From contig OX439044.1 of assembly GCA_949317995.1 (NCBI GenBank), positions 30,886,733-30,950,732 of the forward strand: a DNA stretch of 64,000 bases. Direction: 5' to 3'. The DNA comes from Acholoe squamosa (lineage: Eukaryota > Annelida > Polychaeta > Phyllodocida > Polynoidae). The notes beneath the pieces are model-generated. The model was not told where the DNA came from, did not search any database, and saw only the letters and a program-made list of their open reading frames with translations. Both the position numbers and the translations under genes were made by a program. Shown one piece after another: positions 17,051 to 41,000 of this stretch (position 1 is its first letter; each line of letters starts with the position of its first letter).

Positions 17051-20000
17051 TCAGTGATCTATATTCACGGCACATTGTACCAGTGGACATATATATATAT
17101 ACAATAGTTCAGCAGTAAAATCTTCTGGTACACAATTGAAGATAGATTGACTTACCCCTGCTAGATCCACCAGTTTGTCTGCTTCCTCCTGGGTGATAAT
17201 GTTATCTATCACCACTCTATGCTCCCCCTGGAGCTCCTTTCCCTCCTGGCTGATGTTGATACCTGCCTCCAGGTGATGTGCCATTGTCTGATTGTACTTG
17301 GCATCATGTGGACCGAAGCGCAATAGTGTGTGCGTAGGCTCAAACTTCCGGTACTTCCCAAACTATAGAAAAATAGGGAAAAAAGGGGAGAATATTTTTT
17401 ACCATGTTTGTTATAGTTTATCTTTACAGTTACAGTCATCAAATGCTACATATTCAGCTGATGTACTCGCGAAATGTGCTTTCAGGGGCGGATCTAGGAG
17501 CCTGCTTCTTTCCTTTGTTTAGAAAAAAAATAAAGGTCTTCTTTTCTTTTCCTTTGTTTGGCTCATTACAACGTTCAGTATGACATGTTTTAGTATTATA
17601 TAGGACAGCCACAGCCCAATGGCAACCAAACCTCATCTCATAGGAAACACATGGTTTGTGTCTCCAAATGACTATCAACAGGTATCGAACCACCAAAATA
17701 TTCTGCACTATAATCTTATGTAGAGGTACGTATTGTTTAACCATAGAGTTGGGTACCATCTGACGTGGCGGGTGAGTCGAGTCGTCGGACGTTCCTCAGG
17801 TTCCGGATAGGTGGCAGCACCGATCCGGGTCTGTGGGGACATCTGACGACGAACACCTGGGTCCTTATATAAAGCCCAGGGCTCAGCCGCTACGTCAGAG
17901 GCCCTTCTGGCCTCCGCAGAATGTAGATCACCATTAATCATTATTAGCTGCCCCTTCTATACTATCCGGCAGCCGTGAGTGTGCATTAAGTAATAAATCT
18001 AACCGTTGGCATACACTTGAAACCCTGTCTTACTCTTTCTTTCCGAATCGTAAGACCTGAACCCCCAGGTCCGTAAGGCCACAACCCCTTACACTGGTGC
18101 CGTGACCAGTTAATTCTGGTGTATAGCCCGGACGTTATAACGTCCGAACGGCTAGTACATGGGTTAGATAGCCTCGCGGAAGCTAACCCAGCAGGGCAAT
18201 TGGTTGCCCAGGAGAATGGCAATGGATCATTAGTGCTCCAAACCCATTCGAACTCCCAAGATGCGGAATCTGCATCTTGGAGAGATCCCGAACCCCACTA
18301 TAATGATAGTGAGGAAAATCTACCAGACTCTGTACGACGTGAACAGTCCATACAGAGACAGGGTAACTTAATAGGCCAACAATCACTTGTTGACGAGTTA
18401 ACTAATTCGATGTTCGAAGTTGGTGGTAGTACTAATCCAGAACATCCGGCACCAATGCCAAAAAGGGTAACATTCGGAGAACTACCTTATAGATTACCCA
18501 GACCCGGACTACCAATATTAGATTACAGCGCTATAGATGGCGACTTAACCTATGCGGTACCGGAAGGTGAGGAATTTAAACGACCGGATGTCCTGTTGTT
18601 AAATGAAACTTATGTAACTTTGAACGAGAACCTAAATACCTTGGTCAAAGCTAAAGATGAAGTATTCCATGAAAAACTTCAGCTGGAAGAGGACCTGACT
18701 GGCATGCGAAGTGAATTTGAAGCCAGAAGGAGTGAGTACATGAAGGAACTCGAAAATGAAGAACTAAAACTTCAGGAAATGAGAAAGTCATTCAATAAAG
18801 AATATGACAATAGACACATTCGTATCCAAACATACATAGATACGAACGAACAACTAAGTCTTGATGAGGCAAAATTCGAATCCGAAATATGCCATTATCA
18901 GAGCGAGTTAGAGAAATTGAAACTTCAGTGTAGTAAACATGCTGAAGACAATGAAACCATCCGGGTAGGCATTATAGCTTACAATAAACAACTGGAGGAA
19001 GATAGACAGAAACTCACGAATGAGCTTCAGGAATTGCAGACTACTGCAATAACCTTAGACAAATACGTAGAAGCCGCCCAACTGACTATAGGTACTATAG
19101 ATCCAGCTGTGGTGTCTACAATGTTGGGGAAAACATCCAAGGATGCAACTCCAATTAGATACAACCCATTCGTAGACGACGGGGCTGATAAGAATGTAGT
19201 ATCCGGAATCTATAAGAAACCGGATAATACCGCAGGTAATGGAAACGCACCTACACCAGCAACTCCTGTGCTGGATACAATAGGTCCGGCACCACCAATA
19301 CCAGATTTGAGTCATAAAATTAAAGCGACTCACGATAGTGCTACTGGAGCTAACAATAATACACCCGTAGCACAACCGAGAGTACCGGGACCACCGAGAC
19401 ATATGTTAACACCACCTTCATATTTCTCCCAACCTGGCCACAGTACACCAGCAGGTCCAAGATTACCGAACCCACCTTCGGGTCAAGGTAATGGTCCTAA
19501 TGATGGACGTTTTCCAAGACCAAACCCGCCACAAAACAATGTTAACGGCGGTACGTACCAACCAAGAACAACTTCCTATGGATATAGATATAATTATAAT
19601 CCGGCAGGAAGTAGTAGTTACCAAAATGGTAATAACTATAATCAGGGATGAAATCAAAATAATTCTTACCCTAGGTATGCATCTTCTGGAACAGCTGGAA
19701 ATGCCGGTTACAGTGGTGGATGCCCCAGCGGTTCATCCGGACACTATCCTAACAACGGTCCACCAGGAGGGAACCCTCCAGGCGGCCCAGGAGGATCCGG
19801 ATCCGGAGGATCAGGATCGGGAGGAATTGGCAGGAAGCCAAACAGAAGAGCTTCTATGCCTGCAGGGATGCAAACCATCTTTGATAGAAGCCAATGTATT
19901 CAAAACCTTGGCATTGACTGCTACCGAAAGGGAGCAGATGGTATGGAAGTCATGAACTGGAGCATGCGAGAAGCAGACAGACTACGCGGATGTAATAATC

Positions 20001-23000
20001 CGGCACGTAGACAGGCACGGATACCCCCTCCATATGATTCCAATGATCCATGGAAGGATAGGTATCAAGCTTTTGTCGACGAAGTCAATTGTAGTGGCTG
20101 GACAAAAGAAGAAGCTCTGCCGTATTTGATCTGTTGGTTGAATAAAGGTGGAAAAGTAGCCCTCAATCAATGGAGAGCAGCATACGGAATATACGGCACC
20201 TATGATCAATTGGTCGAATGTGCCGCATACCTATTCGGATCAATCGTTAGAGAAGATCCATGGGTAAGCTTCAAGAAAAGGACACAGAAACCTAAAGAAT
20301 CTCACAAGGTCTTTGGTTTGGAGCTACAGGACTTGCTATCAAAAGCGCGTCCGAATTGGGCTCATGACGATGACTGCTATCTACAGGAGTTGTTTATACA
20401 ATTCTACAATGGATTGCAGAATCCAGATCACAAACAAGTAGTTTGGGATTCTTGGAAGGATGACACTTCCTTCAGTGACCTGTTCATATCAATTGATGGA
20501 CATGACATGAAGAAACTATTGGTAGGTCTAGGACCTAACCCGGTAAGAGCAGCTCCGTTTCAATACGGAGGTACACCTGCTCCGATATATGAAACTTCCC
20601 AGTTAGCCCCGGTCGATTCGCATGAGGCTGATGAGGGGGATGAATATGTCTCAGATGAAAACGGAGAATATATTGGATCAGTCCAGGTAGCTAGGTAGGA
20701 AAGTATTACCGACAGAAGCGGTATAGGAAGGTACATTTGAGAGGGAGGGGAGGATCCGTTGCTGGTAAAACAGCTTCCGGACCGACGCAATCTGGCAATG
20801 TAACCTCTACGGCGAAGCCAACTGTGGCAGCCACTGTTGCTCCGACTAATATGATGGAAACATTAAAAGCCGGATTAACAGAAGCTCTAAAGAGACCGAG
20901 AGTTGATAAATCTCAAAGGAGATGTTTCAGATGCCAGAAACTGTGGCATTACACTCCCGAATGTATGGCTGAAAAACCTGTCCCTCGTAGACAGGAGGGT
21001 GTCTCTGGAATAAGTACAGAGGAAAACTAAGGAGGGGTCTCCAGATGGGCAAAGAAGGGGATCCCAGTGACAAATCTTGCCATGATATCACCATCCGTGA
21101 TGATAGTTCGCATGTAGTAGCAAACTCACCTAGCACCGAGGTGGTTGTAGACACCCGGAAGGTTAGGGAAGCTGATATAACAGGTGCCATGGGAGCACAG
21201 GGGAAACCCAATATCAGTAACGAGGCAGGCGGCTATGAGTTAGCCAGGGTTGGTAGTGCCCACCTGCCCCCGGGTCATCCTTGTCTGGAATACCTGAAAG
21301 GATGTGGATCGACTCCTGGTGTGAACAATGATGTTCCGATCATCACAGATATGCCCTCTGTTTTAAACGGAAGGCGGTGGTATGTTTGCCTTACTGTTAA
21401 CGGAAGATCTGCCGAATTTCTCATGGATACGGGAGCTAGCCACTCCTGTATCTCCAAGAGGTTCTATGATCTTATACCGGATGAACATGATACTCTCAAA
21501 TCGGGAGGAAGTGCTCAGACGGCCGATGGCAGTACCTTGCAGACGTATGGTAGAACATGTGTGAAGCTACAATTGGATGGAGTACATGACTATGTCATGA
21601 GCGCCACCGTTGCGGATATAGCAGATGAGGGGATACTCCCGTTGGATTTCGCATCCCTGTATGGAGTTGTGTTGGAACCCCAATCAGGAGTGTTGAGTGT
21701 GAAATACCCGTATCCTGTAAAGGTTAGATGTGTACTGAGACAAGTGAGCAGTATGGCTAGTGTGGCACACACTGTGCGAATCCCTCCGGGAGTAGCCTGT
21801 GATGTGCTAGTAAGAAGTGATCCTGCAATGCGCAATAAGCCTGCAGTGATAGAACCGGATGTAGCTACTCTGTCAAGTATCGGATTAATATCTGTGGACA
21901 CTATTGTAGCAAATGCGTCCTGGTCGATAGTACCTGTCTCCAATACTGGAAACAGTACTATCTACTTGAAAAAGGGACAAGTTTTTGGAAACGTGACCCT
22001 TTCGGAAACTGTAACGGATAGTAAGTTAAACTTACAAAAGGTAACAGGAAATGATGAAATTTCGGAAGACTTACTCAAGTTGTATAAAGAAACTTCATTA
22101 GAAGATCCGGAACACCGGAAAGAGTTCTATGATTTGCTCTGTCAGTATAGGACTGCCTTTGCCAAACCTGGTGAGAAACTAGGTACGACAAATAAGGTAG
22201 TACATAAAATAGATACTGGAGATGCGGAACCCTTTAAAATACCGTATAGACAGTTGCCTTTAGCGAAAAAGAGAGTAGCTGAAGAGGAAATAAACAAGAT
22301 GTTGGAACAGGATGTATAGTCCCTTCCAATAGTCCATGGAGTAGTCCTGTGTGTATGGTAACAAAGAAAGACGGTACTATCCGCTTTTGCATAGACTACA
22401 GGAAGCTGAATGGATTAACGAAAAAGAATTCGTATCCATTACCGAGAATAGACGAAACCATTGACTCCTTAGGAGGAAACAGTTGGTTTTGTACCCTAGA
22501 CTTGCAATCAGGTTACTGGCAAGTGGGGATGAATCCTTCAGATATGGAGAAAACTGCATTTTCGAGTCATATTGGGTTATTCCAATATAACGTAATGCCG
22601 TTTGGTTTGTGCAATGCACCAGCAACATTTGAAGCAATGATGGAAACAATCCTAAGTGATTTATTGTGGAAAAGATGTCTTGTATACCTTGACGATGTCA
22701 TAGTCTTCGGAAAAACATTCGAAGAATGTTCTAATAACCTAAAAATGGTACTAGAACGTATTATCTCTAATGGTCTCAAATTGAAACCTAAGAAATGCCA
22801 CATGTTTAGAAAGTCCATAAATTATTTGGGCCGCATCATTAGTGATGAAGGAATAAAAGCTGATCCGGAGAAAATCGAATCAGTTAAGAATTGGAATAGA
22901 CCTAAAACACCCAAAGAAGTAAGGTCCTTTTTAGGATTCTGTTCCTATTATAGGGAATTTATTCCGAATTATTCTAGAGTCAGTTATCCATTACAAGCAA

Positions 23001-26000
23001 TAGCTAACTGGACTCCAGGAAGTACCAAGGAAAAATTTCCTTGGACGCATCAACAGGAATCTGCTTTTCAAAAGCTAAAAGACCTGTTCACGAGTACTCC
23101 GGTATTACAATATCCGAATGAAACGGATCATTTCATAGTAATGATCATGCTAGTAATGATAGCATTGGTGCAGCTCTCTCGCAAGTCCAAAATGGGAGAG
23201 AGGTACCTATTGCCTTTGCCAGCAATACACTGAGCAAAACTCAGCGCAATTACTGCACAACCAAAAGAGAGTTGTTAGCAGTAGTCGTATATACCAAGAA
23301 GTTCAAACATTTTCTATGGGGAACGAACTTTACATTACGTACGGATCACTCCTCTTTAAGATGGCTACTGAACTTCCGAGATGCTGAAGGAATGTTAGGC
23401 CGATGGTTAGCCCATCTTTCAGAATATGGGCTTGAACATCACCAGATTCAGCATAGACCTGGAGTGAAGCATTTAAATGCTGATGCTTTGTCTCGAATAC
23501 CAATCCGGAAATGTGATAATCCGGATTGTACTGATTGTGGAGCTCATAGGGCAGTGTTAGCAGGGATTCGAAGACCATTCGAACCCCTAGTTGCCAGTAT
23601 ACTGGATTGGTCTATGGATCACATACGACGTTTCCAGGAAGCTGACTCGATAACTGCGCAGCTACTGCAATTAGTACCAAAGGGTATACGTCCAGTTAGA
23701 CCTGAGGTCTCTCTGGAAAATCGAGAAATGAGAAGGTTTCTTGCTCAATGGACCGAGCTTGAAGTCCGGAAAGGCGTGTTATACCGTTGGAAGCCATGTA
23801 ATAATGGTGAGAAAATCATGCAAGTGGTGATACCACATGCCATGAGACATGACATTATGTACTTCTGTCATGGACATCGGACCAGTGGTCATTTCGGAAG
23901 GAAATGCTCGTTAGCACGACTTTCCAAGAAATACTACTGGCCTGGCATGACAAGAGACTTGCAAAGATGGGTAACCACCTGTCCGGATTGCTGTAAAAAC
24001 AAACCCGGACCCGGGATGGGCAAACTTCCCCTATCCCAAGAACTTTTCGGAGTTAGATTCGCGAGAATCAGGGTAGATATCATTAGTGGATTGAATACAA
24101 CCGCTAATGATAATACCTGTATGATGGTAGTGTGTGATTATTACACAAAATACACTAAAGTATTTCCACTACCGGACCACAAAGCAATTACTTGTGCCGA
24201 AGCCTTTGTAAAAGGTTGGGTACTAAATTTCGGTGTACCATTAATGCTACACAGTGACCAAGGCAGAGAATTCGAATCAAATCTCTGGCAGGGTATGTGC
24301 GAATACTTAGCTATTTGTAAGACTAGAACCAACCCGTATAGGCCACAAAGCGACGGATTGGTGGAAAGGTTCAATAGAACCCTTATTCAAGTTCTGAAGT
24401 CACTTGTCAATGAACATATGGACAACTGGGATGAGCAATGCCATTTTGTGACACATGCTTATAACAGTACGGTACATTCAAGTACAAATTGTACCCCGAA
24501 CCTTCTAGTATTCGGAGAGGATCTGATAATGCCTGCCGACTTAGTATTTGGAGTCGTAGGGATGGACCCGGAACTACCTTGCCATGTAGTTTTCGTGGAA
24601 TGTTTAAGAGACAGATTTAAAAAAGCATATGAGTCTGTCCGAATTGATTTGGAGAAAAGTGCCAAATGGCAGAAAGCTGGATATGATACCGATCTAAAGC
24701 ATCGGAAATTCCAATCCGGAGACAGAGTTCTCAGATTACATGAACCACTTAGACACATAAAATTAGCGTCTAATTGGGATGGTCCCTTCAAGGTAACACA
24801 AGTTATCAGTGATTGTACCGTAATTATTAAATCTGACCTTGGTCGACTTTATAAGTCAAATGTGGCTAGATTAAGGAAATGGTCTGGGAGGGAGACCTCC
24901 ACAGAAATGTATGGTGAAGGTTCCGGAAAGATCCTGAACCAGAATCGTATAATAGACCAGGTAAAGAACACTACAGTGAAGCGAGGCCGTGGTAGGCCTA
25001 AGAAGTGTTCCGAATCAGTGGCACCCACGCCAACACCGATTAAGCGTGGGGGAGTTAAAAAAGTCTCGGCAGGTGAAGACAAAAAGAAGAGGAAAGGTGT
25101 CTCGAAGGCTAAGAAACACCTAGAAAAGGCTCTTCAGACTGTCAGGTCCGATAAAAAACTATCCGAGAAGGGGAGATACGTTCGTCGCAGCCCTCGAATT
25201 GCCCAGAGGACTGCAGTGACCTAACCTGTATACACAACGGGTGTAAAGTTTACATTTAGAGGAACGGATGACAACTGACCCGAAAGGCTTATTTGTCGCC
25301 GCCGTATGATGTACCAATGGGTAGTGGACGGATAATCCGGTGGATTTGCTTAAGCTTTCCATAATCTCCACTTAAATCCCCAGACGAGTCATCAGCTTGA
25401 GCGATAATTACCTAAAAACAATCAGTTTGTTGATGTTCCGTTTGTAGCACGTGCGTTTCCGCATGACGTCACCGCATCCAGTCTCGGCTGACCTCTCGTG
25501 ACCTCGCGAGCCGCGGGGAAATGACGTCACGAAAGCTGGCCTGTCGCCATATTGTTTTTTGGTAACGTCCAAGACGGTCGAGCTCGCTCCCCTCTTGGAT
25601 TTTACCGGCTAGCAAACTCCTCGCTGCTCCTCCAGAGTCTGTCTCCTAGTAGGCAGACTCCGTCTGTGTCGGCCCCGGCGCCGTAAAAGCCGGAAAAAGG
25701 AGTAGTTTACTCCCGTGGGTGATTCCCCAGTCATGGCTGAGGAATCCATAGCTGCAGCCAAGCTAAGACCCGGATAAGCTGACTCCGTCCGCAGAAGCTT
25801 TTCCGGAAGCTTTGTCACCTGTTACACAGGAAGAGAGCGAGATGATGGACGTGGAGGAACCCACGGATCGCTCGTTCGAGGAGAAGCTAGCCTCATTCTC
25901 ACTGAATGAGCCAGAGAAAATGTTGTCTCCACTCCCACCCGAGGGATCCAGAGGGGCTACGAGTGCTGAACCCGCAGCGACTGGGTCCGAGACCGCACAG

Positions 26001-29000
26001 GTCGACGGACCGAAGGACCAGTGGAAGCCAGCAGTGGCTGACCCGTTCCCTGCAGAGTATGATGGTCGCTACCTGTACGTCCACCCGGAACTACAGGCAC
26101 AAGTGACCTATGCTGACAGTACACCAGTTAGGTTGGACCCGAAGGTGAGGATAGCTATCGAGGGCGTCATGGTCCCCGAACAGCTGGATAGGACGCCTCC
26201 CGAATGGCTCCGAGACTGGCCGTGGTTCCAACGGGGACTCATGGTGGACGCTGCTTTCCGCGAAGTAGTGTAGGAAGCCAACAGAGCTTTCCTGCTCGGA
26301 GGATATCCAAAGCCGGATAAGACTCTGTGGAACGTCAAGGCGACGAACATTGATTGGGTAGGCTGCGTCTCGGAACCCGAGGGGCAGACTTACCCACGTC
26401 CTTGTGCCACCCGGCCCCAGTACCGGACCACAAAGGAGTTTCGGGAAGCCGCTGCCAACTTTGAACAGTGGGACGACGGTTATTACATAACCGAGCAGGA
26501 GTTAGTGGATGTCCAAAACAATTCACTAACAGGTATGAACCGAAGTGCAGCCCTTCGGACGGTTCTTGTCCGCCGAATGACTGCAGAACAGGAGGCCCGG
26601 GAAGAGGCTAAGAGGGCAGCGGAAGTACCCGCACCTCCTATCCCCGACCTGAAGCTTGCCACCCGAAGCACAGCCGGTTCTGCATCAGCCACCGGCAGTA
26701 CTACCACCCCGGTAGAAGCCTCGACCTCCAGCGCATCCGGAACCCAGGAACCGGAGGAAGACTGGAAGGTCAGTAAGAACAGGAGGTCCGCTGCTCGGAA
26801 GCTCAAGAATCTACCGGATTCTGCTAGAGCCGAGCCGAAAGCCAGCACCTCAGCCACTGGTAGTACTGCCATGGAGGTTGAGTCGTCAGACGAGGAGTCG
26901 GTGCACGAGTCCTCGGTTTAGTATGATGAGAAGGCCACTCCATCAACTCAAACCGAGGCCGAACGAAGGGCTAACGCCAAATCCGGATTAAAAACCCGGA
27001 TTCCGACGTGTTTCTCCGACTGTGCCTACGGAGTAAAAAAGGACGGCTCTACCCTATATGCCTGCCTGGACTCAGTCAATAAAAATAATGAGTCAGATGA
27101 TGAAGACTGGATGCTTCTTTCGGACGAGGACCCCAATCCGAGCAAAGCCTATCGAAAGATGTGGCTTATGCTAAACCACACCGAAGGGTACTACACTTAT
27201 ACCCAGAGGAGAAAGCTGCGTTGGGCTCTTGAGAAGTGGTACGGTGACGACCAGAAGTCCTGTCCCTTCTCTATCTGCCAGGATGCGAGTGATGTCTCGG
27301 TCCGGACCTGGAGTACTCCAGCCCGGTTCCAAAGGCATCTGGTAGAGGCCCACTTCCACCATCACCCGGTTTACATTTGTGATCCGAGTTATGGTAAGAA
27401 GGGCAAGAAGTGCACTACGAAGGTTCAATATAACCGACGTAGCGATCTGGCGAGGCACCAGAAGAAATGCCACGCAGAAGGTTTGGATGGGACTCGGAAG
27501 CGTATCATGGAGCTTCATCAGGAACTCATGAAGGAGTTTGACAGTCTGAGCGAGGATGCTTGGTCTAAGATCTGACCAGGGGACCAAGTCCTCTGCGAGG
27601 TTCCGAAGACCAAGGATTCGAAACTCCGCGCAAAGATAGTCCTGGCTCCTGGAAAGGGTAAGCTGGACATGCACGAGTCTCTCTGGCAGAAATGCGAGGA
27701 ATCCGGCAAGGAGGGAAAGAGAGCTCGTGAAAAAAGCAGAAGAGACCAGAACCGTGGTGGTAACGGTAATGGTCAGACCACCACTGCTAAAGTCAGAGCA
27801 GATGACCGCTCCAGGTCTCCTCTGGCTCGGCACCCCCATGAGCAGGTTCAGGGCACTCCTGTGTTCAAGAAACCCGAACCTGCCGGATACGCTGGCGCCG
27901 TATCAAAGCCTGGGAAAGTTAACCCCCGCAACTTTCCGTCCTTGACCCAGGGACCTGGACCTGAGAGCCAGACCTTGGTCGTTGGAAAGGGTGGTCGACT
28001 TGTTCCCAAGAAGACCTCAGCACCTGCTGCCGCCGGATCCGCATCCACTCCAGCCGCCCTCCCAACCAACTTCACCCCGGAGCAGTTAAACCTTTATCTG
28101 CAGATGGGGCTGAAGCCTCCTACCTACTGTATGCCAACAGCAGGCGTGTCCGGGAGTCCCACACCCGGAAGTGGTCCTTAGGCCGCATCGACTCCCCCCA
28201 AGGCTGTCGCTGCACCAGAGAAACCAAAAGACGCCATTACCATTAAAACCGGTAATGCGGAAGTTTGGTTCGAGAAGTCTCGCCAGGGGGAAGCAGATGT
28301 CCAGAAGGCCATCTACACCCACTGGGAGAAATGTGTCCGTGAGAAGGCAACAGAATTCCATCAGGGTCTTCTTAATGATACCCTGTTGTGCATGAAGGAG
28401 GTTGCGGATGCTGAAAAGCAGCGCCTCGAGACCCTCATTCGGGACGATGTAAAGTCCCAGGAGGAGGCTGCCGCAGCTGCCCAAGAAAAGGCAGCTATGG
28501 ACGTACACGTCTTGGAGAAACGTGTCAAAGAGGAAATTACCCGGAATACCAACTTGAACACCAAGTTCATGAGGGTATTCGGAGTCGATCTCGACGAGTG
28601 GGACGGCACTCCCGAGTCGGCTCTAGCTCTTCTTAAGAAGAAGCATGCGAAGGAATCCGCCTAAGCATGCTACGGGTTATTTTCTAAAAAATTTTTTTTT
28701 CTGTCCACTAAATAACCAGATATAGTCTTTGCGGAACCCTACAGGTCTGCGAATGTCTTTTATTAGTATATGAACACCTGTTCTTTGTGTTCCGGGTTCC
28801 TTTTATGACCAGCATCATTGTATGATTCAGGCCGTATAATTCTTATTATACCCTGAATAGTCTATTCGGATTAGGAACTTCACTTACAAACAATCCGATA
28901 GTAGACTTGCTGCTGTCAGACGTATCCGGATGCCGGTTCCAGACTTCTGCTGCTATCTGTGCTAACCACTATACTAGGATGGACTTTACGATTTACCTCT

Positions 29001-32000
29001 ACATTTCACCTATACTCCCGAATGGACTTATAATACATGTTACTACTACTTCCGGACCAGCCTATATTGGACTTTTTACTTATGTCAACAATACTTAAAT
29101 GGATTACGATTCTACACTGTTGACAAAACCGGATCTACACTTTACTTCTACGCTACACCATTCGGATATACTTATGAACTATAGCACTTCCAGAGGATTG
29201 TGGGTAGCTGCCCCAAATTCATCTACCGTGTTCACTCTAATAACCAGGAATCATAGACTTTAGCACGTCCATCCCGTGGTTAGCTGACCACACTTACCTT
29301 CTAGTATCCGGAAAACTACAGCAGAAGACTCCAGCAGCATCTACCATTTTTTATATTGTACATAATGTCATATGTCTATTTTTCTATAATGTTATTTGTA
29401 TGTGCATATCCACACTATGGTCATAACTTACTATATATTGTGATACGGGTATATACATATCTGTTAGTACGGATCTCAAATTGCTGTTCATATTAATAAT
29501 ATAAGATCCGATAAACTACACCAGAACTTACATATTATTGTCCGGCGAGACATATTGTATCATAAATATATCTGGTGTTATAGAGGTTATTTGGTACACG
29601 GTTATATCATATATATTATTATATTCATTACTACACCGTGATTTTTTTCTTTTCAAGTGTATAATACAAATGGTTCTACTAGTACTACTCACGGAATCCT
29701 TAACGGATTCATATGGTTATATCATGTTATGATGATACATGATTATATGTCATTAGATAGTGTAGTTACTTTTAAAGTCTTTTTCAAGACTATATAATCA
29801 AATGTGTTATTAATAACTACAAACACATACGGATGTTATCATGTGATTTATTTAATATTAACAGTTCCGTTACACATAACTGTTACTATCACATATATAC
29901 GAATGATGATACTTGTCCTATTTCTTATACCGTAAACATGATATGTTATCCTAAAGGTATAATAAGCTAATTAACAGTTTCGATACATACAACTGTTATT
30001 CATTCAAGTAATTCGTATCATATTACAACATCCAATTTATTATTATGTAACTATATACACTATCAGTATATGTATATGACATTCGAATCATATTTAACTT
30101 GGTGTTAATGTTATATCTATGGTTGTACCTCTATTACTAATGGTTTAGACATATAGAAATGTTATCCTAGTAATATTACTATAACTATAACACCCTCCTA
30201 AATGTCTGGGCGAGTGGTGTAGAGGTACGTATTGTTTAACCATAGAGTTGGGTACCATCTGACGTGGCGGGTGAGTCGAGTCGTCGGACGTTCCTCAGGT
30301 TCCGGATAGGTGGCAGCACCGATCCAGGTCTGTGGGGACATCTGACGACGAACACCTGGGTCCTTATATAAAGCCCAGGGCTCAGCCGCTACGTCAGAGG
30401 CCCTTCTGGCCTCCGCAGAATGTAGATCACCATTAATCATTATTAGCTGCCCCTTCTATACTATCTGGCAGCCGTGAGTGTGCATTAAGTAATAAATCTA
30501 ACCGTTGGCATACACTTGAAACCCTGTCTTACTCTTTCTTTCCGAATCATAAGACCCGAACCCCCAGGTCCGTAAGGCCACAACCCCTTACACTTATGTA
30601 ATGCATTCACTCGTAAAAGTGGAATTTCACCTTTCAAACCCTCCAAATCACTTAAAATACTGAACAGGGAAATTTCCCCCTCTCTGGGATCATACATGCT
30701 TGAACCCATCCCCATTTTGCCCTATTCTGCACCCAATTATTGATCATTTCCTACCTTTTTTTTAATAGATCTTTTGGGATCCTAGACCAAAGAGCTACCC
30801 CTCATACTCCATATATATATTCTGAATCAGAACAGCTTCGACATTTTATCTCAGCTTTCGAACACTAACATAAACCAATCAAAGTCCTAAATTGGTACAT
30901 TTCGGTGTACTACAAGAAGTGACGTCAGTAGCAATCGTGGAATGATACCAACAATGACCAAACCTTTCTACATAAGCACCTGCTCTCTTGAGAACTACTT
31001 CTTGAAATGTACAATAGGTTGGAAGATGCCAATCCCTGGTCAAAAAGAGCAGAGAATATTGGTGGTTAACTCTCTTCTGTTTTAAAACATTATTCAATTG
31101 CTGAGAAAGACAGACGTAGCAAGAATTGCATCTGTGAATTGCTCTGGCTACATCTATAGATCTCAGCTTCCTAGTTAATTCTAGCTTTTGCTTGTTAGGC
31201 TATGGCTATTAAATTATTGAGCAAACGCTAAAAGTCTATGAGACATATGGTAGGACCTCGCCCTCTACCAGGTGACGCCACAGAGGGAGGCTCTACCTTG
31301 TTCCCCTTAGTCCAGGTGGCAGCACTGAAACACTGGCTGACCAGCCTAGGCATTCAGACTTCTTCTTTCGGGTTACATTACAGCAATGTAGTATCTACAG
31401 GGGTGGATACTAACTTTTTCAGCCACTGGCCACCCGGGCCCATAGCTTTAGAAATCTATGGGCCCGAAACTAAAGCTGTGGCCCAGAGTAACTAATTTAC
31501 TTTGTTCTAAAGAGAAAACTCTGGTTGTTCTCATCAGGCCAAAATATAACTTGGTCAGATTGGCCAGATTCTTACAGATTTTATCTTTGCAATGATATAA
31601 CATGCCTATATTAAGATATCTTAACTTTGAGAGAGATCTCTCTTTGAAATCCTGTGGGCCATCCCGGACCCATAGGAAGGCAATTCTTGAGAAAACTATG
31701 GACCCACAGCCAAAACTACGGGCCAGTGGCTCCCGGGCAAGCATTAGTGTCTACCCCTGTATCTAGTATCAAGATGAAGTATTAAACAGATAATTGCACT
31801 GCATAGATATGAAGGTATACAGGTAGTGAGTAACAAAATACCTCCAATACCCTGGTACACCTGCTCACTGACCCAACACCCAAACCCCTGCCCCTTCAAA
31901 CAAGATACCGGCCGGTGATGGATAGGGCTGTTGTGCAAGACAGGAATGAAAGGATGGGGCCCGCCCAGACAAAAAGGAAACTACGAAAAGGACATTTGTA

Positions 32001-35000
32001 AAGATAAAGAAATACAATAAAGTTATCTCTTGTGCTGTCACTTAACGGATATTGATGACATTGCTTTTTCAGTCTTGATTGTCTTTTTCCCTTGCAATTG
32101 ACTTTTGAATGGTGGATTCGGCATGGCAGTGGTGGTGGTGCCTTTAAGATAATTTAAATCATGAGGAGCAAACCAGTTTTATCTTTTTTTTTCATTGCAA
32201 TTTTTAGCAACAGTTCAATTCATGTGATGCAGTAGAGTGAACAATTTTGTAAAGAACATTTGTGGTCACTGTGAGTTGCAGCTCCGAGTAATGTTTAGCA
32301 AACTGACCTTAACCAAACTGATATGTGATGGGCTATCCTATCAAATACTCAAACAGAAACTTTTGATTCTGAACCTCCAAGTTAGGGACTGGAATATCAA
32401 AAAAAACACCAATTAATTACACTAGATATACTATTAAATTCTAAAAAAAAACATCAATGGGGACCAAACATTGGGTTTACTATCATGATCCCTATCTTTC
32501 ATAATCCACATTATCACGAACCTCAATACAGTATTTAGGTCCGTGACATTGTGTAGTTATTAGTTAAATTCAGCAGTTTTGAATAGTGAACCATACGTCC
32601 TTGTAGACCCAAAATAGACATTACTATGGTGTGTAGTCTCCACTGCTTGCCTAGTCCACTTGACCACCCCTGAGGGATCAACATACAGATATCTAACTTA
32701 ACCATCTTGATCTTTGAGCTGTTCAAATTGTCCCCAGGCTGTCTAGGGTGGCCTTTGTGTTTCAACCAAAGATGTGGCCAGCCTTCCAGCCCCTCCCCTT
32801 ACCAGCCTTAGGTCCCCCCTCTACATCCAATTAACTACTCTATGGTAGACTAGCTCTTTATCTGCCTGCAATGGTGTGGAGTGTCAACTGGTGTACAACA
32901 GCTAGGTCTGGTTGACTTTGTTTGTCTTTTTGTTCTTGTAATACTAGGGAGTCTTCTCAAGTTGTGAGATCACCATAAAACCATTGGGCACATAAATCTT
33001 TATCTCACATACACCTGTATTTTGGAACAGACTGATGTTCTCGGGTGGGGGGGGGGGTGCCAGAGATTGAAAAAAATGCTGGTTAAATTCAGTAGGCCTA
33101 GGGACAATGGTGGGGTAGAGAGGACACGTGGTAGCTTCATATCTGTGACGTCATCAAGAGTAGCTGGAACACCGTTCATCGCCCCCCCCCCCCCCATCAA
33201 GAATGCTAGGCCTACAGTATTATAGTTCTTCTTGTTGTAACCTACGATTTCGATTATATACATGTATACATGGTTATGGTTTTAGAATACTAGAATATCA
33301 CAAAATGCATATTCTGGGTGAGTTCTTGAACTCCAAGTATAGAGAATAACTTGATTGTTGGAATACACGTTCCTGATAATAACCAATATGCTATCCATTT
33401 TTTTATATATATTTTACGTATACATCAGTTGATACTGCTACGATCAAATGGATTATCTTGGGGTAAACATGATATTTTCAGAAGTCAGAGCTCACACTAA
33501 TCTGTATAATATTGGCTAAATCTAAAACCTGACCCCGACATGCATCAAAAAGCCGTCCTGTGTTGACGTGCATAAAGTATTTGATAAATGAACCCCTTAA
33601 CATTATCAATGCTCACAATCTCACCTATCCGCTCACTGTGTGCATTTACAGATACAGATAAGACACTTTGCTGCCTTGCTAGTACCCACGACCTGTCAGG
33701 TAGGGCACAGTTGAGTCTGGCATCCCCCAGGGCTCCTTCATAAAGCCCCATGTACCACCCGCTGTTGTACAATACTGTCACAGGGGAATGGGAATCCCAA
33801 CAGGTCATGGTGGGAATGGATCAGATTAGGCAGTGTTCCTATCACATGGTAGACACTGAAAGGCCAGGTGACATGCTACCCACCTGCCACCTGACAACAG
33901 GGCGGGCGTGCCCTAAGGCTCTATGTTAGGTCCCCATCTACACAAACAGAAACTGTAAGTCTGATACTGTACCTGGATAACGTAGGAGGGATCCATGAGC
34001 AAAGGTCAGGGATAACATATACAAATTGTATGTGAAATATTAATGGCCTTTAATCTGATAGCGAGATGTGTTTGATCCAACACATGGAATGCATTCTGCA
34101 AGATGAATACTCGTTTCATATGATTTAACATAATTAATCAAGCACACTGATTTATTTCAAAACAGTAGCAAAGTAGCTGCAGACCCAGCAAATCTTAACT
34201 ACCGTAGGGCCTGTATAAGTGCCCCGGCGATCATAGATTTCAAACTGCCTCTACCCCCGGCCCTTATTCAATACTTAGTTTATAGTGCATTATTCATATT
34301 CAATGCTGCACTACCCCCGGCGCTTATTTAAGACCGGCGCTCATTCAAAGACCCGGTGCTTATACAGGACACTACAGTATATGCTGTATACTGCCAAGAC
34401 ATCTTTGATATTATGCCCCCCCCCCCTCTAATTCACTTCTGTCATCTTAATGAGTTTAAGTAACCGTTCAATTCCATGCGGGCTTCCCTAGCCCACTTAA
34501 AAAGGGTCTAATTCTCATCTTTCCTATCCCCTCAGGATGTGTGTGGTACACATATATGCGTGGGCACTGACACATTCCTTTGTGAAATCGTGTAATGTTC
34601 TCGCCATGAATATGACCTTAGCTGTCGAAATGGCGTTAAACATCTATTACTCACTCACTCAATTCCATGCCCTTTCCTCTCAACACCTGAATTATGTACC
34701 TCTAGCTCCATAAAAAGTCCAACACGTAGTCCTTCTCAAAAACTTTCCACTAAGGTCTATGTTGAAGGCATCCATTTGAGATTCCATAACATCAGATCTT
34801 CAGTGAAAACGGCAACCCGGACAGGGTAGAATTAACACATTAAGTCGTGGCTACAGTGCAGCTGTGCCGCTCTAGATCAAAGGGAACGACAGCAAGAAAC
34901 GGTTCTTTTGATGGCTAGATACAACCCATGACTGTCCCCACTATTCTGTGGGAACAACAGTTTTTGTGACCAATTCAATTTGTCTAGGTTTATAGGGGTA

Positions 35001-38000
35001 GTCTTACTCTAGGTGTGGAGGTAATTGCTTAGGTTTATGGTGGCCGGGTGTTCTGAGGACACACCATTACAGGGTGCCTACATAATACCGTAGCCACCCC
35101 CTACCTCCAATTCTAGCCACTCTATGCGGCTCTTACTGTCCTCGATAGCACTTCCCCAACAAGAGCAATGGTCTGTTGTATAGGGTCGATACCATACTTC
35201 GTGAGAGCATTGAGTCACCATGGTGAGAGGCACATGGGCCATAAAACCATAAAGGATCCAAGTTCCAGACACTGAGGGGTCTGGCAGTGCAATCTCCACC
35301 CCAGGAGGCTGCTTCTCTGGCAATAGAGCACTATGGTCGTGAGGATTTTAGCACATCATAGACAGAATGGTTACATCTCACACTCCTGTGTGGCATCTCA
35401 CCTGGCTACGATAACGTCGTTCTAAGGACCACTAGTACCCCCGCTGTGACATAATTCATGGAGGATCCCAGCTGAGGATTTCTAAATGGGAAACCATCCT
35501 TACGATTCCCACCATTTCCTAAATCCCAAATTCAAGTATAAAAAAAAGGTCCAATGTGGTTATAACTGTGGGAGGGGGGTGGTTAGATGTTGCTTGATTG
35601 ACAGCTATTAGCTGACTTGCCTTCCACTGTGTTTAAGTATAGGGAAGGGGAAAAGTTCCCAGACCAAATTCTGCCTGTGCTCCCCCTGTCCTAATGCCCG
35701 TGTAGTTGCAGCCTTACAGATGTGATACAAGCTTGTGTTGGGTGACGATTTTCTCAGGTCTCAGTTGTCAGCAAAAAGGGTAAAGAAATAAATGAAAGCA
35801 ATTCTTTTGCCGGCTTATATAATGATGTGTAAGGGAGATGAGTCGATAGGTAGGTACCACCTGGACGTCCCAATAGTGTGGCGACTAGACTAGAATTAAG
35901 TTATTTGTATATGGGCGGAGAGCCTATAATGTACACCTGTGAGGGGGCCTACCACAAAGCCAGCCACACAAGATTGATCACTCTATATGCTCATTATTCA
36001 CACCTGATCTAAAGGGAGGATTTCTAATAAGAAACTTAATTTTTCTTCATCTTGAACATAGGAATATAAACGTGCTGTATTTCTTTTGTAAAAGCTTGGC
36101 ATTTCAAATATGTTAAAATAAATCAGAAATTGCCCACATACTAAGCTGCATTGATAGGTGACATCATACCCTTAAAGACGCACCCCTTAAAACTGCCTAC
36201 TTTCAGTAGACCTTTACATCTATCCAAGTATGACCCTCACAGTGCCCCCCCCCCCAAAAAAAAAGAAGAAAAATCAAATAAATCTAAAGCTTTCTTATGT
36301 TTGGTATGGTTCTTTGTTAAACTCGAAGAATTGGAAACCATGGAATTTTCCAGTTCTTCAAGAAATTATCTCTGCAATTGATACCAAAGAGTCTGGTGAT
36401 ATCATACAAATCTGGCCTACATCTCTCTCTTTTTTTAAATCAGCCCCATTTTACTATCAAAGGCACCCATTTAATATCAAGTCCCTTCTTACCGTAGTGC
36501 TATTGCCCCATTACATTGGGTATAGCTTTGACAGGGTCTATAGTCTACCTTTATATGAAGTTAGTGGGGCAGGTTTTAGTATGCAGCACATACCTATTGT
36601 TATCTGAGAACCTCACACTGAGCGTATGAAGCAATCTAAGTGTCAGGTAACATGGCTATCTTCTGTCCTTTTCCCAGAGCTGAGTTTGTTGAATCATCCT
36701 GTCTAGACAGGCCCACATTGGGTAAAAAGCTTTAGGATTTTAATGCGGTTTTTATTCAGAAAGTCAACAGTCCCCATTCTTGTGGAGCTTTTATTTGATA
36801 CCAGCCGTGCCAGAAAGGTGATACTTTTCTACAACTGTTGAATACAAGTCGATGGAAAAATAAACATGGAATTGCTTTCTGCACATCATCATTTATATCT
36901 GTCAAGGGAACTACTATACCTGCAGTGATCATATAATATTATTGTAGGGAAGAGCTCAATTTACTCGGCCAGGTTGTATTATTTCCCTCTCTTCTAAACG
37001 TAAATCTGATCAGATGAATTGTCATTTTCTCACCAATGATTGTGAAGAAATGTCTTTGTATAAAATCTACATTATTACTGGAGGAGCTCCACAAATACCC
37101 AGGAGGAAATTAACATCTATGCGAAATTAAAGGCAACTGATCCTATTTCCTAACTGAGGACACGGTGTTTTAGCAGTTAAAAAGAAACACACATTCACAT
37201 AATTATCTTAAACAACTGAATTCTGTTTTTATAGGTATTCGCAATAAAAAAAAATGTATAAGCCCTACTCGAACACGCACAGGTGTGACATTGTGCTATC
37301 GTGGGGTAAACTGAATTCCCATTCTAGACCCCACTTTTAGCAAAACCCAGCCACAGGCATTCCAACAACGTGCTCATCTATAGTACAATGTCTGTTAGTA
37401 GCAACCTGCTGAAATGCCTCTCTGCCTTTGAAGTGTTTCCTTCTTGACAGAGAAACTTCTGACAATTGTTCATTTGGTCTGCCTGGGGCATCTGGGGTCC
37501 TAGCTGTAGGGTAGAACTCCCGAGACTCGACCACTTACAAGTCTGATAACTAAAGCTGTTACAAGGCATCTAAAAAAATAAGCATATTTGTTTATCAAAT
37601 TATGAATTATTCCTATTCCCCATTTATTGCATGAGGAAATATCGCATAAAGTACGCGGTAGTAAAGAGACTTGAGAGTATTAGGTCTATCATATATAATC
37701 TATGATGATAACGATATAGAGTGTACGTTAGGGGAAAAAGTGGTCGAGTTTAGGGTAGTCTACCACAGACCTGTACTGATCATGTACAAGATGCCGATGC
37801 TATGAGAGAGCCATGTGGTGCTGTTATAATACAGTGTGGTGGGTGTGAAGGGGAAGTATGAAGTGTAAGGTACCTCAATGATGGACTGTCACCACAAAGT
37901 ACCATGCTTAGCTCACCTTGCACTGGGAGATTCAATATTTACACCCTACTCACACATGTATGACTATAGGGTGGAATTGGTCCTAACCTTCTCTTAATAC

Positions 38001-41000
38001 CATAGCCTTCATGGGAAGATTGATACATATTTTAAACCAGAGGAACATATATAATTTAGAATTTCCTGATTCATCTGAGATGACTTTGAACCCTTCTCAA
38101 AACTCAGGGCATGGCAAATGAAGGTTAAAGTTCAAATTTTGGCGGGGCAATTCGTGATCTTTAATTTGAAAAGAAACTTAATTTGGCAACTCTTATATTT
38201 AGGGAGTATATATGAAAGGGTGTGGTGCCAAGTTCTTGCTACAGAAAAGATGATAGTTATGTATCATCAGTTGGCATAGGTAATTTTCTCGTATCTATAG
38301 AGAATCTGCTAACCGCTTGTTCAGTGTACATTATGTATACAAAACCGTATCAGGAGAAAGTACACAGCAGCATATCCCAATTGCATGTGATTGCTCTTAA
38401 AATCGAGCCGACAATGGGATCATTTATCGGCCACCCATTTAAGGTTCTCCTCAAAGAAACTACCAGCATATCACAGCGTTAAACAGGGCTTATTTACCTT
38501 GGATATTTTGCCTTTGCAGTTAGTGGTTTTAGGTTCCTTGTGTTAGGCGTAACCCCAAATCCCATTTGGAACGACGCATAAATTCAGATTTCAGTCATGC
38601 TTATTACCCCCGGTCATTACCATCTTTTTTTAAATCAGATGTATGTCTCAGGGGTGTGTCATAATAGTACTGAACTTAGATCCAAGGAGCAGGGGAAAAA
38701 TGACTTTAAGGAGTATATTTTTTTCTGAAGTTTTCTGATGTTAAACTGCCTACTTAAGTATACGGCAACGTGAAGCCTACCATTTTCAATCATTCCAGAC
38801 GTACATGCTGCCGTATACACATCGTAATCTTAGTCTCTGCATTAATCACCTGTTGAGGTGAGACGTTTGCACTTGTTGACACCGAGGCAAGGTAACACGC
38901 ACCATTTCAGTGAAACAAAACCTTTTGATCAAAAGTTATCCCTATACTTTCTTACATGTATCAACTGTATAGCCTTTAGGATATCACTATGCGTGTCATA
39001 TAAAGGCATCTTGCTGAATTCCAGGCATCCCTAAGCAATCACTAAGATTGCTCTTTGGAATTTGCACACCAGGTAAACGGGCAAAGACCTCCAAGGGTAT
39101 TGGCTGTTTAAGCGCCGGGTCTTTGAATTAGCGCCGGTCTTGAATAAGCGCCAGCGATAGACTGGTATTGAAATCTATGAGCACCGGGGTGTTTAAACAG
39201 CCCTCTGAAATCTTGTATGGCTCTACAGGTGTTTTTAAATGGGAAAGTACCTATAGTCTAGATCGGAGACTAACACCAGAGGCACACCTAACACTGTCAT
39301 TTTGTTACACAGGACCACCAGCTATTCAATACCTATGCATGAATTTCTATCTTCCAGCTTTGATTTGAAATTGCCATGATGTACCTATGGTTTCAATCGA
39401 CAACTATTTGTGGTGAATGTACACGCTTAAGGTAAGATTCACATACTTATTTCACTTAAGGACACACAAGCTTTGATATATTACATTTTATTCTTCATAC
39501 ATCATTATTATCCTACCACCCCGAGGTCTTTAATTCTTACCCGGACTTGTTCTCACAGTGTGGCTACAAATCTCTTTGCACTGCAACCGGTTTGGGGAGA
39601 AAATTGTCCCATTTTTAACAATAGCGTTCACCCAACAATAGAACCACGCCCACTACTGACATCTCTGACGATGAAGGAGGATCCAGATAGAGACATATTA
39701 GTGTTGTATGAATACATCACTAGCTAGCAAGTCTTCTCACCAGGATCATTCATCCTGTCCACCTTATAGGCTTAATGCGCGAGTATACAGTGCTGGAGCC
39801 AGCATTCCATTGGCACCAGTACAATGCCGAAGCGATGTATCATAACGCTAAGGAAACAGAAAACTCAAGGCATTACGCAGCCCTTGAAGGGAAACGCCAA
39901 CAAGGATCAAGTCTTTGTCCACCACACAATAGGTGTCTTCTCATTTTCTAAGTCATTATTTTCCTTTTCCCTTTTTTTTCTTAGATAATAAGCAGGAACG
40001 TCAGCATACAATTTAGATGTAGCAGATATGAGGGTGTCGGTGGGAGATGTGTTAGAGGGTTAGAATTAATGTGGTAAAGTGACTAATCTAAAGAAACGAA
40101 AGAAAAATCAAATATTCAAATGAAGGTTCTTGGAGAGGGGGTTCTCAGAGCTGCTGCATTGGAAATCTTCAGATTCAGGACATCTCGAAAAAAAAACACA
40201 TTTTATCCCTGCAGAGCTATAGACCTCGGGAGCTCGAGGGGAGTCTCACCCAAACTCTTTTAAAACATCTATCACAAGACCATCCTTCCCACAGCATACC
40301 GTCTCCCAGTTCAACCCTGTGGATACTCCAGTACAAGCCAGGTGAGTTGAGGTCAAAGAGCTCTGCCACACAAGAGGCCTGTTGTCACAGAAAGGTGACA
40401 TGTAGGGTTAGAGTGATGCTTCAACCCGCAGCTTGTGGTCAGCAAAGTACAGACAAAATGACACCAATTACAGCCTCACTCTAACCACAGTCATGGAGCT
40501 CTGAGTAGCTGTGTACTCAGTGTAAGGACAATGGGGCTGTATTTATAAACTCATTTTTGTTACATTTGTTAGATAGACGTTATTTAAAATAACTGCATGT
40601 TCTTGCCATAAAAAGGGACTGTCTTAAATAGGATACTCATTCCTTAAGCAAAAAAATCCGTCAAAAAGGGATAATTTTGGTGACACTAGTAACAGCAACA
40701 AATTAGTTGAACTGCAAAAGTATCATTATCACATATCATTATCTAAGTTAAGTTAGACGGTCAAAGCCCACATCCTAGATGCATTATGCTCCAGATGGGG
40801 AAATGATAAAAATGTCAAAAAGAGTCAAATTCTGAAATATTCTACAAACAAGAGTGATTCGACTGACTGATTACATGTTGAAACATTTTACTTCATGATG
40901 AAAAACTGATAAAGAGATCACCTATTTCAGCCATTGGCTAATCCATAATATAGGATAGCATTTTGCAATGCAAGTAGCCCGAAAGGGCACTTAATCTCTT

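What the first reader, a model, noticed from the sequence alone, without database searches (positions are those of the whole stretch)
25842..28664. Large extra zinc-finger coding region in a gypsy-type retrotransposon
About 940 codons in one frame lie where env would be, but there is no signal peptide or membrane segment. Instead there are an acidic N-terminus, a Trp/Pro-rich block, two C2H2-like fingers and a C-terminal coiled coil. Its GC content is visibly higher than gag-pol, and it has its own CpG-rich upstream region. Inferred: a captured host-derived or independently acquired protein that may regulate expression, localisation or host silencing. I do not recognise the family.
Basis: partly seen in the sequence, partly recalled or inferred. 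Interest (0 to 1): 0.8.

Follow-up and report, generated by a model that had tools for sequence, protein, structure and literature searches.

The report
Retrotransposon's conserved extra zinc-finger gene
A very abundant and recently active gypsy-type jumping gene carries, besides its usual genes, a large selectively maintained zinc-finger gene of unknown ancestry with what looks like its own switch; it may be a built-in regulator, as complex retroviruses have.

Summary
The window has a complete Ty3/gypsy-type element (17719-30592; 375-bp LTRs, 4 mismatches; 4-bp target duplication). Downstream of pol is a third gene. In this copy it is broken: four in-frame stops, and a shifted frame near the true start at 25733, not 25842. 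It is no private insertion: an ORF3 24-mer occurs 1638 times in the host genome, a pol 24-mer 1567 times, and on contig C1 69 of 98 pol sites have ORF3 at the expected distance. Three of ten fetched copies have open gag, pol and ORF3; 4 of 8 dateable copies have identical LTRs. At dS above 0.15, ORF3 dN/dS is 0.09-0.20 (median 0.13), like gag and pol. All finger Cys/His are invariant in 30 of 30 copies. The CpG-rich block upstream keeps two CRE palindromes in 24 of 30 copies, suggesting an internal promoter. Word-based protein, Pfam and PDB searches found no relative of ORF3, although pol has 64-70% identical relatives. Best reading: an accessory gene for a nuclear zinc-finger protein that regulates the element's own expression, working like Cer1 CERV, Grande GENE23 or foamy virus Tas. 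Host capture is neither supported nor excluded.

The parts
17719..18093 (+). 5' LTR (375 bp, TGT...ACA), with TATA box
   Evidence: blastn LTR-LTR, 4 mismatches; 4-bp duplication CTTA on both sides; TATAAA at LTR position 150
18079..21015 (+). gag region, broken in this copy (approximate limits by transfer from an open copy)
   Evidence: open gag frame of 979 aa in L035, L045, L047 and 976 in L041; CCHC knuckle just under the Pfam cut-off
20979..25224 (+). pol region: protease, RT, RNase H, integrase; broken in this copy
   Evidence: Pfam hits on pieces; open pol of 1411 aa in L033, L041, L043, L045, L047
25440..25732 (+). CpG-rich, conserved block upstream of ORF3: candidate internal promoter (a splice acceptor near 25634 is not excluded)
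   Evidence: GC/CpG; 94% identity to L047 of the other subfamily; alignment of 20 of 30 loci
25464..25471 (.). CRE palindrome 1
25522..25529 (.). CRE palindrome 2, 58 bp from the first
25733..28664 (+). ORF3, accessory gene (982 aa in the open copy L029); in this copy broken by a frame shift near the start and four stops
25875..25904 (+). CRM1-type export-signal-like motif, kept in 28 of 30 copies; about one such match is expected by chance
27261..27353 (+). zinc finger 1, C-x4-C-x19-H-x4-H
   Evidence: all four ligands invariant in 30 of 30 loci
27378..27473 (+). zinc finger 2, C-x10-C-x14-H-x4-H
   Evidence: all four ligands invariant in 30 of 30 loci
27717..27743 (+). basic cluster, nuclear-localisation-like
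   Evidence: K-R pattern in the intact copy from residue 664
28371..28595 (+). Pro-free, heptad-like stretch (candidate coiled coil, approximate limits)
   Evidence: crude a/d count
28665..30217 (+). AT-rich 3' internal region with no long ORF listed, fast-diverging
30218..30592 (+). 3' LTR

Best explanation
ORF3 is a constitutive, selectively maintained accessory gene of a recently active Ty3/gypsy family. It encodes a 982-residue, probably nuclear zinc-finger protein that binds the element's own DNA or RNA. It is most likely made early, from an internal promoter with two CRE sites, so that host bZIP factors can start its expression independently of the LTR; the protein then raises output of the full-length genomic RNA by activating the LTR or helping the RNA out of the nucleus. 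Shown here: presence at most pol sites sampled, purifying selection, invariant fingers, conserved upstream block with CREs, no env features, recent activity. Inferred: promoter activity, nuclear location, nucleic-acid target, direction of regulation.
For: Copy number of an ORF3 24-mer is close to that of a pol 24-mer (1638 and 1567; reversed controls 0). On contig C1, 69 of 98 pol sites have the ORF3 24-mer downstream, most often at 4960 bp, 79 of 98 with the hits added. ORF3 dN/dS is 0.09-0.20, median 0.13, in the 67 of 78 pairs with dS above 0.15, and 0.10-0.24, median 0.16, when the finger piece used for picking loci is left out. Gag gives 0.13-0.19 and pol 0.10-0.11 in comparable pairs. 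All 17 Cys/His of the finger piece are invariant in 30 of 30 loci. The upstream block is 94% identical to L047 where the 3' internal region falls to 78-80%. Both CREs are kept in 24 of 30 loci. No membrane segment by hydropathy. LTR pairs are identical in 4 of 8 dateable copies.
Against: No transcript, promoter or binding data. An acceptor-like site about 97 bp upstream of the ATG is present in 5 of 6 copies inspected, so ORF3 could come from a spliced mRNA instead. The upstream block is mosaic between subfamilies and falls to 77% in L049, and pol is also 90-98% identical in the L047 comparison, so recombination may explain part of its similarity. Three of the five CRE palindromes in the window lie outside the element. 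The export-like motif is at chance level by count. No homologue gives an independent clue to function. The loci compared were ranked by similarity to the finger piece, which biases that piece towards conservation. 31 of 100 listed ORF3 24-mers on C1 have no exact pol 24-mer upstream.
Confidence: 0.5

Rival explanations
1. RNA-export factor made from a spliced mRNA, in the manner of CERV of C. elegans Cer1: it coats genomic RNA through its fingers, multimerises through its C-terminus and shuttles.
For: Same position as CERV between pol and 3' LTR, unrelated to env (PMC10309623). A donor-like site about 848 bp from the LTR start scores 11.2 in 4 and 7.4 in 4 of 8 copies with a found LTR start, and an acceptor-like site lies upstream of the ATG in 5 of 6 copies. 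Export-like motif plus basic clusters.
Against: The conserved CRE palindromes lie upstream of the acceptor and would be unexplained. The splice scores come from a simple textbook matrix. The export-like motif is at chance level.
Confidence: 0.22
2. A structural or packaging protein, a second Gag-like protein that goes into particles.
For: Large coiled-coil-prone, low-complexity protein; an exact shared eight-residue PAPPIPDL string with gag.
Against: No blastp similarity between gag and ORF3 better than E 0.099. Gag has its own knuckle. C2H2-type fingers, not CCHC.
Confidence: 0.12
3. An antagonist of host silencing (piRNA or chromatin pathway).
For: High recent copy number with near-identical intact copies; orphan protein with acidic and basic disordered-looking parts.
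Against: Strong purifying selection rather than fast change; nothing specific points to a host target.
Confidence: 0.12
4. A foreign element or host gene nested in this copy or carried as a passenger.
For: GC and codon use differ from gag-pol.
Against: Present at 79 of 98 pol sites on C1, mostly at fixed spacing, and under selection about as strong as gag and pol.
Confidence: 0.03

Closest known systems
CERV of Cer1 (C. elegans LTR retrotransposon; PMC10309623: abstract, passages and section 15 seen)
   Same: Non-env protein between pol and 3' LTR, no obvious homology outside its lineage, cysteine loop that may be a zinc finger, conserved in related elements
   Different: CERV is made from a spliced mRNA, has 517 residues and G and M domains; ORF3 has two C2H2-type fingers and its own CpG-rich upstream block. 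No sequence comparison was made here
Grande GENE23 (maize; seen only through the review PMC7264820, part 1 of its text and passages)
   Different: Grande's gene is antisense to gag-pol; ORF3 is sense. Plant lineage
Retand antisense ORFs with TRP28 domain (PMC11963269, abstract seen)
   Different: Antisense, TRP28 domain, plants; no Pfam match in ORF3
Foamy virus internal promoter and Tas (PMC8670036, start of abstract in a search listing; rest recalled)
   Same: Logic: internal promoter upstream of a 3' regulatory gene that controls LTR and internal promoter
   Different: Retroviridae with env; the internal promoter here is only predicted; no homology found
Errantivirus env (Drosophila gypsy group; recalled)
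   Same: Position after pol
   Different: ORF3 has no evident signal peptide, membrane segment or Pfam env match

Membership tests
Ty3/gypsy LTR retrotransposon (Metaviridae) | pol order protease-RT-RNase H-integrase | tested here: met
   Pfam on the open pol of L047: gag-asp_proteas, RVT_1, RT_RNaseH, Integrase_H2C2, rve in that order (rve at 30 bits, under its 32.6 cut-off); same order on window pieces
Ty3/gypsy LTR retrotransposon (Metaviridae) | LTRs TG...CA and 4-6 bp target duplication | tested here: met
   TGT...ACA, CTTA in the window; exact 4-bp duplications in 4 of 7 fetched copies with complete LTRs, not exact in 3
Ty3/gypsy LTR retrotransposon (Metaviridae) | Gag with CCHC knuckle | tested here: inconclusive
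   zf-CCHC E 4.7e-4, 20.6 bits against a cut-off of 20.8
env-bearing element (errantivirus type) | signal peptide and transmembrane segment in the third ORF | tested here: not met
   best 19-residue hydropathy mean 0.67 (hydropathy only); acidic N-terminus; no Pfam env hit
C2H2 zinc-finger proteins | two Cys and two His in finger spacing | tested here: met
   C-x4-C-x19-H-x4-H and C-x10-C-x14-H-x4-H, invariant in 30 of 30; spacing is unusual
C2H2 zinc-finger proteins | match to a curated C2H2 profile | tested here: not met
   no zf-C2H2 hit at E up to 1 in window pieces or three intact copies
CERV-like export factor | sequence homology to CERV | not tested
   CERV sequence was not obtained
CERV-like export factor | needed for unspliced RNA export | not testable with these tools
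   needs experiment
Foamy-virus-like internal promoter system | transcription start inside the element upstream of the regulatory gene | not testable with these tools
   only conserved CREs and CpG content
Plant accessory-ORF elements (Grande, Retand) | accessory ORF antisense to gag-pol | tested here: not met
   ORF3 is in sense orientation

The most novel reading that the evidence does not exclude
A Ty3/gypsy element outside the retroviruses has independently evolved complex-retrovirus-like temporal control: a CRE-driven internal promoter makes an early zinc-finger regulator of unprecedented family, which then switches on the LTR or genomic RNA, and this two-stage programme underlies its expansion to over 1,600 genomic matches.
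Probability: 0.28. Interest if true: 0.8.

Novelty: new variant of a known kind. Interest (0 to 1): 0.6.

Why it matters
Third ORFs in env position are often taken for env-like or left unexplained. This one is large, shows no env features, is about as constrained as gag and pol, and sits in a family with many near-identical intact copies, so its function can be tested directly. If it is a regulator with its own promoter, complex regulation in retroelements arose outside Retroviridae in a new way, and an orphan zinc-finger family is added to mobile-element biology.

Tried and rejected
Private or nested insertion: rejected. Env: rejected. Decayed chance frame: rejected. Duplicate of gag: no similarity beyond a short string. 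Homologues: the finger piece against 5.8 billion proteins gave 69 candidates, none at E 1e-3; residues 390-982 of an intact copy, only the 7992 candidates sharing most words scored, none; viral contigs none; PDB none (one chance hit at E 0.77); Pfam and NCBIfam only chance-level hits. These searches reach only relatives that share short exact words and are of similar length, so distant homologues may be missed. A single-sequence fold of the finger piece was useless (mean pLDDT 44.9), so no fold search was run. Rfam found nothing in the window. Host identity: a molluscan haemocyanin family gave no match, but its 14 control genomes did not ring either, so it says nothing. Literature: seven searches listed no paper on this element or on a zinc-finger third ORF of this kind, as far as the listed titles and abstract starts show; one search found no paper at all, and (25 of 46; 6 of 615) listed only part. 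One search was for foamy viruses only. Further papers were seen only as abstract or passages: PMC12440569, PMC8220671, PMC6238403.
Full report
WHAT IS THERE. The window holds one complete LTR element, 17719-30592 (12.87 kb). Its 375-bp LTRs differ at 4 positions and it is flanked by CTTA on both sides. Pieces of the internal region match aspartic protease, RT, RNase H and integrase in Ty3/gypsy order. The finding's frame, 25842-28664, lies downstream of pol in sense orientation. It is not open: stops at 26271, 26919, 27573 and 28179 precede the last at 28662. The depletion of stops is still far beyond chance (4 against 30 and 48 in the other frames; minimum 17 in 2000 random sequences).

COPIES. 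A protein search with the finger piece returned 150 scored places out of 8542 first-look candidates, all over the full piece and none with a stop inside. Exact 24-mers give less biased counts: 1638 for ORF3 and 1567 for RT, reversed controls 0 in both. On contig C1 (first 100 places of each list), 69 of 98 RT sites have the ORF3 24-mer 4.5-5.9 kb downstream on the same strand, most often at 4960 bp, and 79 of 98 when places are added; 19 have neither, and 31 of 100 ORF3 24-mers have no exact RT 24-mer upstream. Of 20 further RT places (8 on C1 without a partner, 12 on other contigs), 16 carry clear ORF3 sequence at the expected spot, one (L065) shows only 23 residues at the edge of the stretch, and three (L056, L066, L070) show none.

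ARCHITECTURE. Ten copies were fetched as separate 5' and 3' stretches. All ten have ORF3 downstream of pol sequence and nine also show gag; in L037 the match begins within pol. Seven show a complete 5' LTR, L049 a truncated one, L037 none, and L043 has it inverted. In L041, L045 and L047 gag is 976-979 codons, pol 1411 codons in another frame overlapping gag by 37 nt (consistent with -1 frameshifting, inferred), and ORF3 991 codons open; the other seven have at least one shorter or missing frame. The protein begins MAEES at the equivalent of window 25733; it has 982 residues in L029. LTR pairs could be compared in 8 of 10 copies (L049 over 222 bp only); 4 are identical, the others 98.1-99.5%. 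Exact 4-bp duplications are seen in 4 of 7 copies with both complete LTRs; three are not exact.

SELECTION. 13 of the 30 loci, those with long open frames, were compared pairwise. In the 67 of 78 pairs with dS above 0.15, dN/dS is 0.09-0.20, median 0.13; for example L021-L029 dN 0.051, dS 0.422, 988 codons. The 11 closer pairs range from 0.06 to 0.41; the three values of 0.33-0.41 have dS below 0.09, as expected if copies decay after insertion, and L005 has a frame-shifted tail. Gag gives 0.13-0.19 at dS 0.31-0.46, with one close pair (L033-L039, 308 codons) at 0.61; pol gives 0.10-0.11 at dS about 0.20 for full-length pairs with L033, and 0.07-0.34 over all pairs. Loci were picked by protein similarity to the finger piece, which biases that piece; with it left out the 67 pairs give 0.10-0.24, median 0.16, so the conclusion holds. 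Only open frames were used, a mild further bias.

ANATOMY. Acidic N-terminus (pI 4.05); a Trp/Pro-rich block; a linker; a finger domain; a strongly basic low-complexity part (pI 10.8); and a Pro-free heptad-like C-terminus. Finger 1 is C-x4-C-x19-H-x4-H, finger 2 C-x10-C-x14-H-x4-H; these ligands and nine further Cys/His of the piece are invariant in 30 of 30 loci, and 196 of 217 residues are. There is no hydrophobic segment. A CRM1-type export-like motif is kept in 28 of 30 loci while one spacer residue varies, but about one match is expected in a shuffled protein.

UPSTREAM BLOCK. 25451-25700 has GC 0.59 and CpG o/e 1.17. Two CRE palindromes 58-59 bp apart are both present in 24 of 30 loci, one in 4, none in 2; the window as a whole has five against 0.48 expected, the other three outside the element. 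Against L047/L048 this region is 94% identical, while the 3' internal region falls to 78-80% at 29374-29974 (83-87% just before that) and the ORF3 5' part is 83-84%. Against my reading: part of the block exists in two alternative versions shared across subfamilies, L049 drops to 77% there, pol is 90-98% identical in the same comparison, and an acceptor-like site lies about 97 bp before the ATG in 5 of 6 copies. So internal promoter and splicing remain rivals.

RELATIVES. An RNase H-integrase piece has relatives at 64-70% identity over 85-100% of its length in public contigs without names. Named hits are at 32-50%: Mytilus, Pinctada, a spider and fishes at 35-40%, and three records labelled as bacterial metagenome bins at 50, 41 and 32%, which I take for eukaryotic contamination. 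ORF3 has no hit in the same collection, nor in Pfam, NCBIfam, PDB or viral contigs beyond chance level. Whether the 64-70% pol relatives carry an ORF3 could not be seen, because their contigs were not available.

COMPARISON. Cer1's CERV (abstract, passages and section 15 of PMC10309623 seen) is the closest functional parallel: a non-env protein after pol, unrelated to anything outside its lineage, with a possible zinc finger, needed for genomic RNA export. Maize Grande GENE23 (known to me from part 1 and passages of the review PMC7264820) is a nuclear protein with its own promoter, but antisense. Retand elements (abstract of PMC11963269) carry antisense ORFs with probable DNA binding. Foamy viruses (start of the abstract of PMC8670036; the rest recalled) use an internal promoter and Tas. 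ORF3 works like these in outline, by inference, but I file it under none of them. The element itself is a Ty3/gypsy element; the third gene is a new variant of the known 'additional ORF' kind.

VERDICT. The finding is real, broader than stated (a gene of a family with over 1,600 genomic matches) and wrong in detail (broken in this copy, starts earlier). Function is inferred; origin unknown.

Noticed in passing
window 34208-39203: Inverted repeats (69 nt, 83%, arms 34299-34367 and 39104-39172) flank about 4.7 kb and contain short tandem units: probably a DNA transposon with long terminal inverted repeats.
   Followed up: partly
L043 1-948: One element copy starts with an inverted duplication of its first 0.95 kb (LTR and gag start), as if from aberrant strand transfer during reverse transcription.
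   Followed up: no
window 25560-25660 and equivalents in L001-L030: Two alternative versions of the same stretch are shared across otherwise distinct subfamilies, which points to recombination between element lineages.
   Followed up: partly
gag and ORF3, string PAPPIPDL: An exact eight-residue string is shared by gag and ORF3 of the same family; a short binding or cleavage motif, or chance in Pro-rich sequence.
   Followed up: partly
pol 3' end, window 24979-25005: AT-hook-like basic stretch at the integrase C-terminus (Pfam AT_hook E 0.14, below cut-off).
   Followed up: no
window 43177-43724, 48245-48856, 59762-59957: Several tandem arrays (units 33/98, 38-42, 31/61 bp).
   Followed up: no
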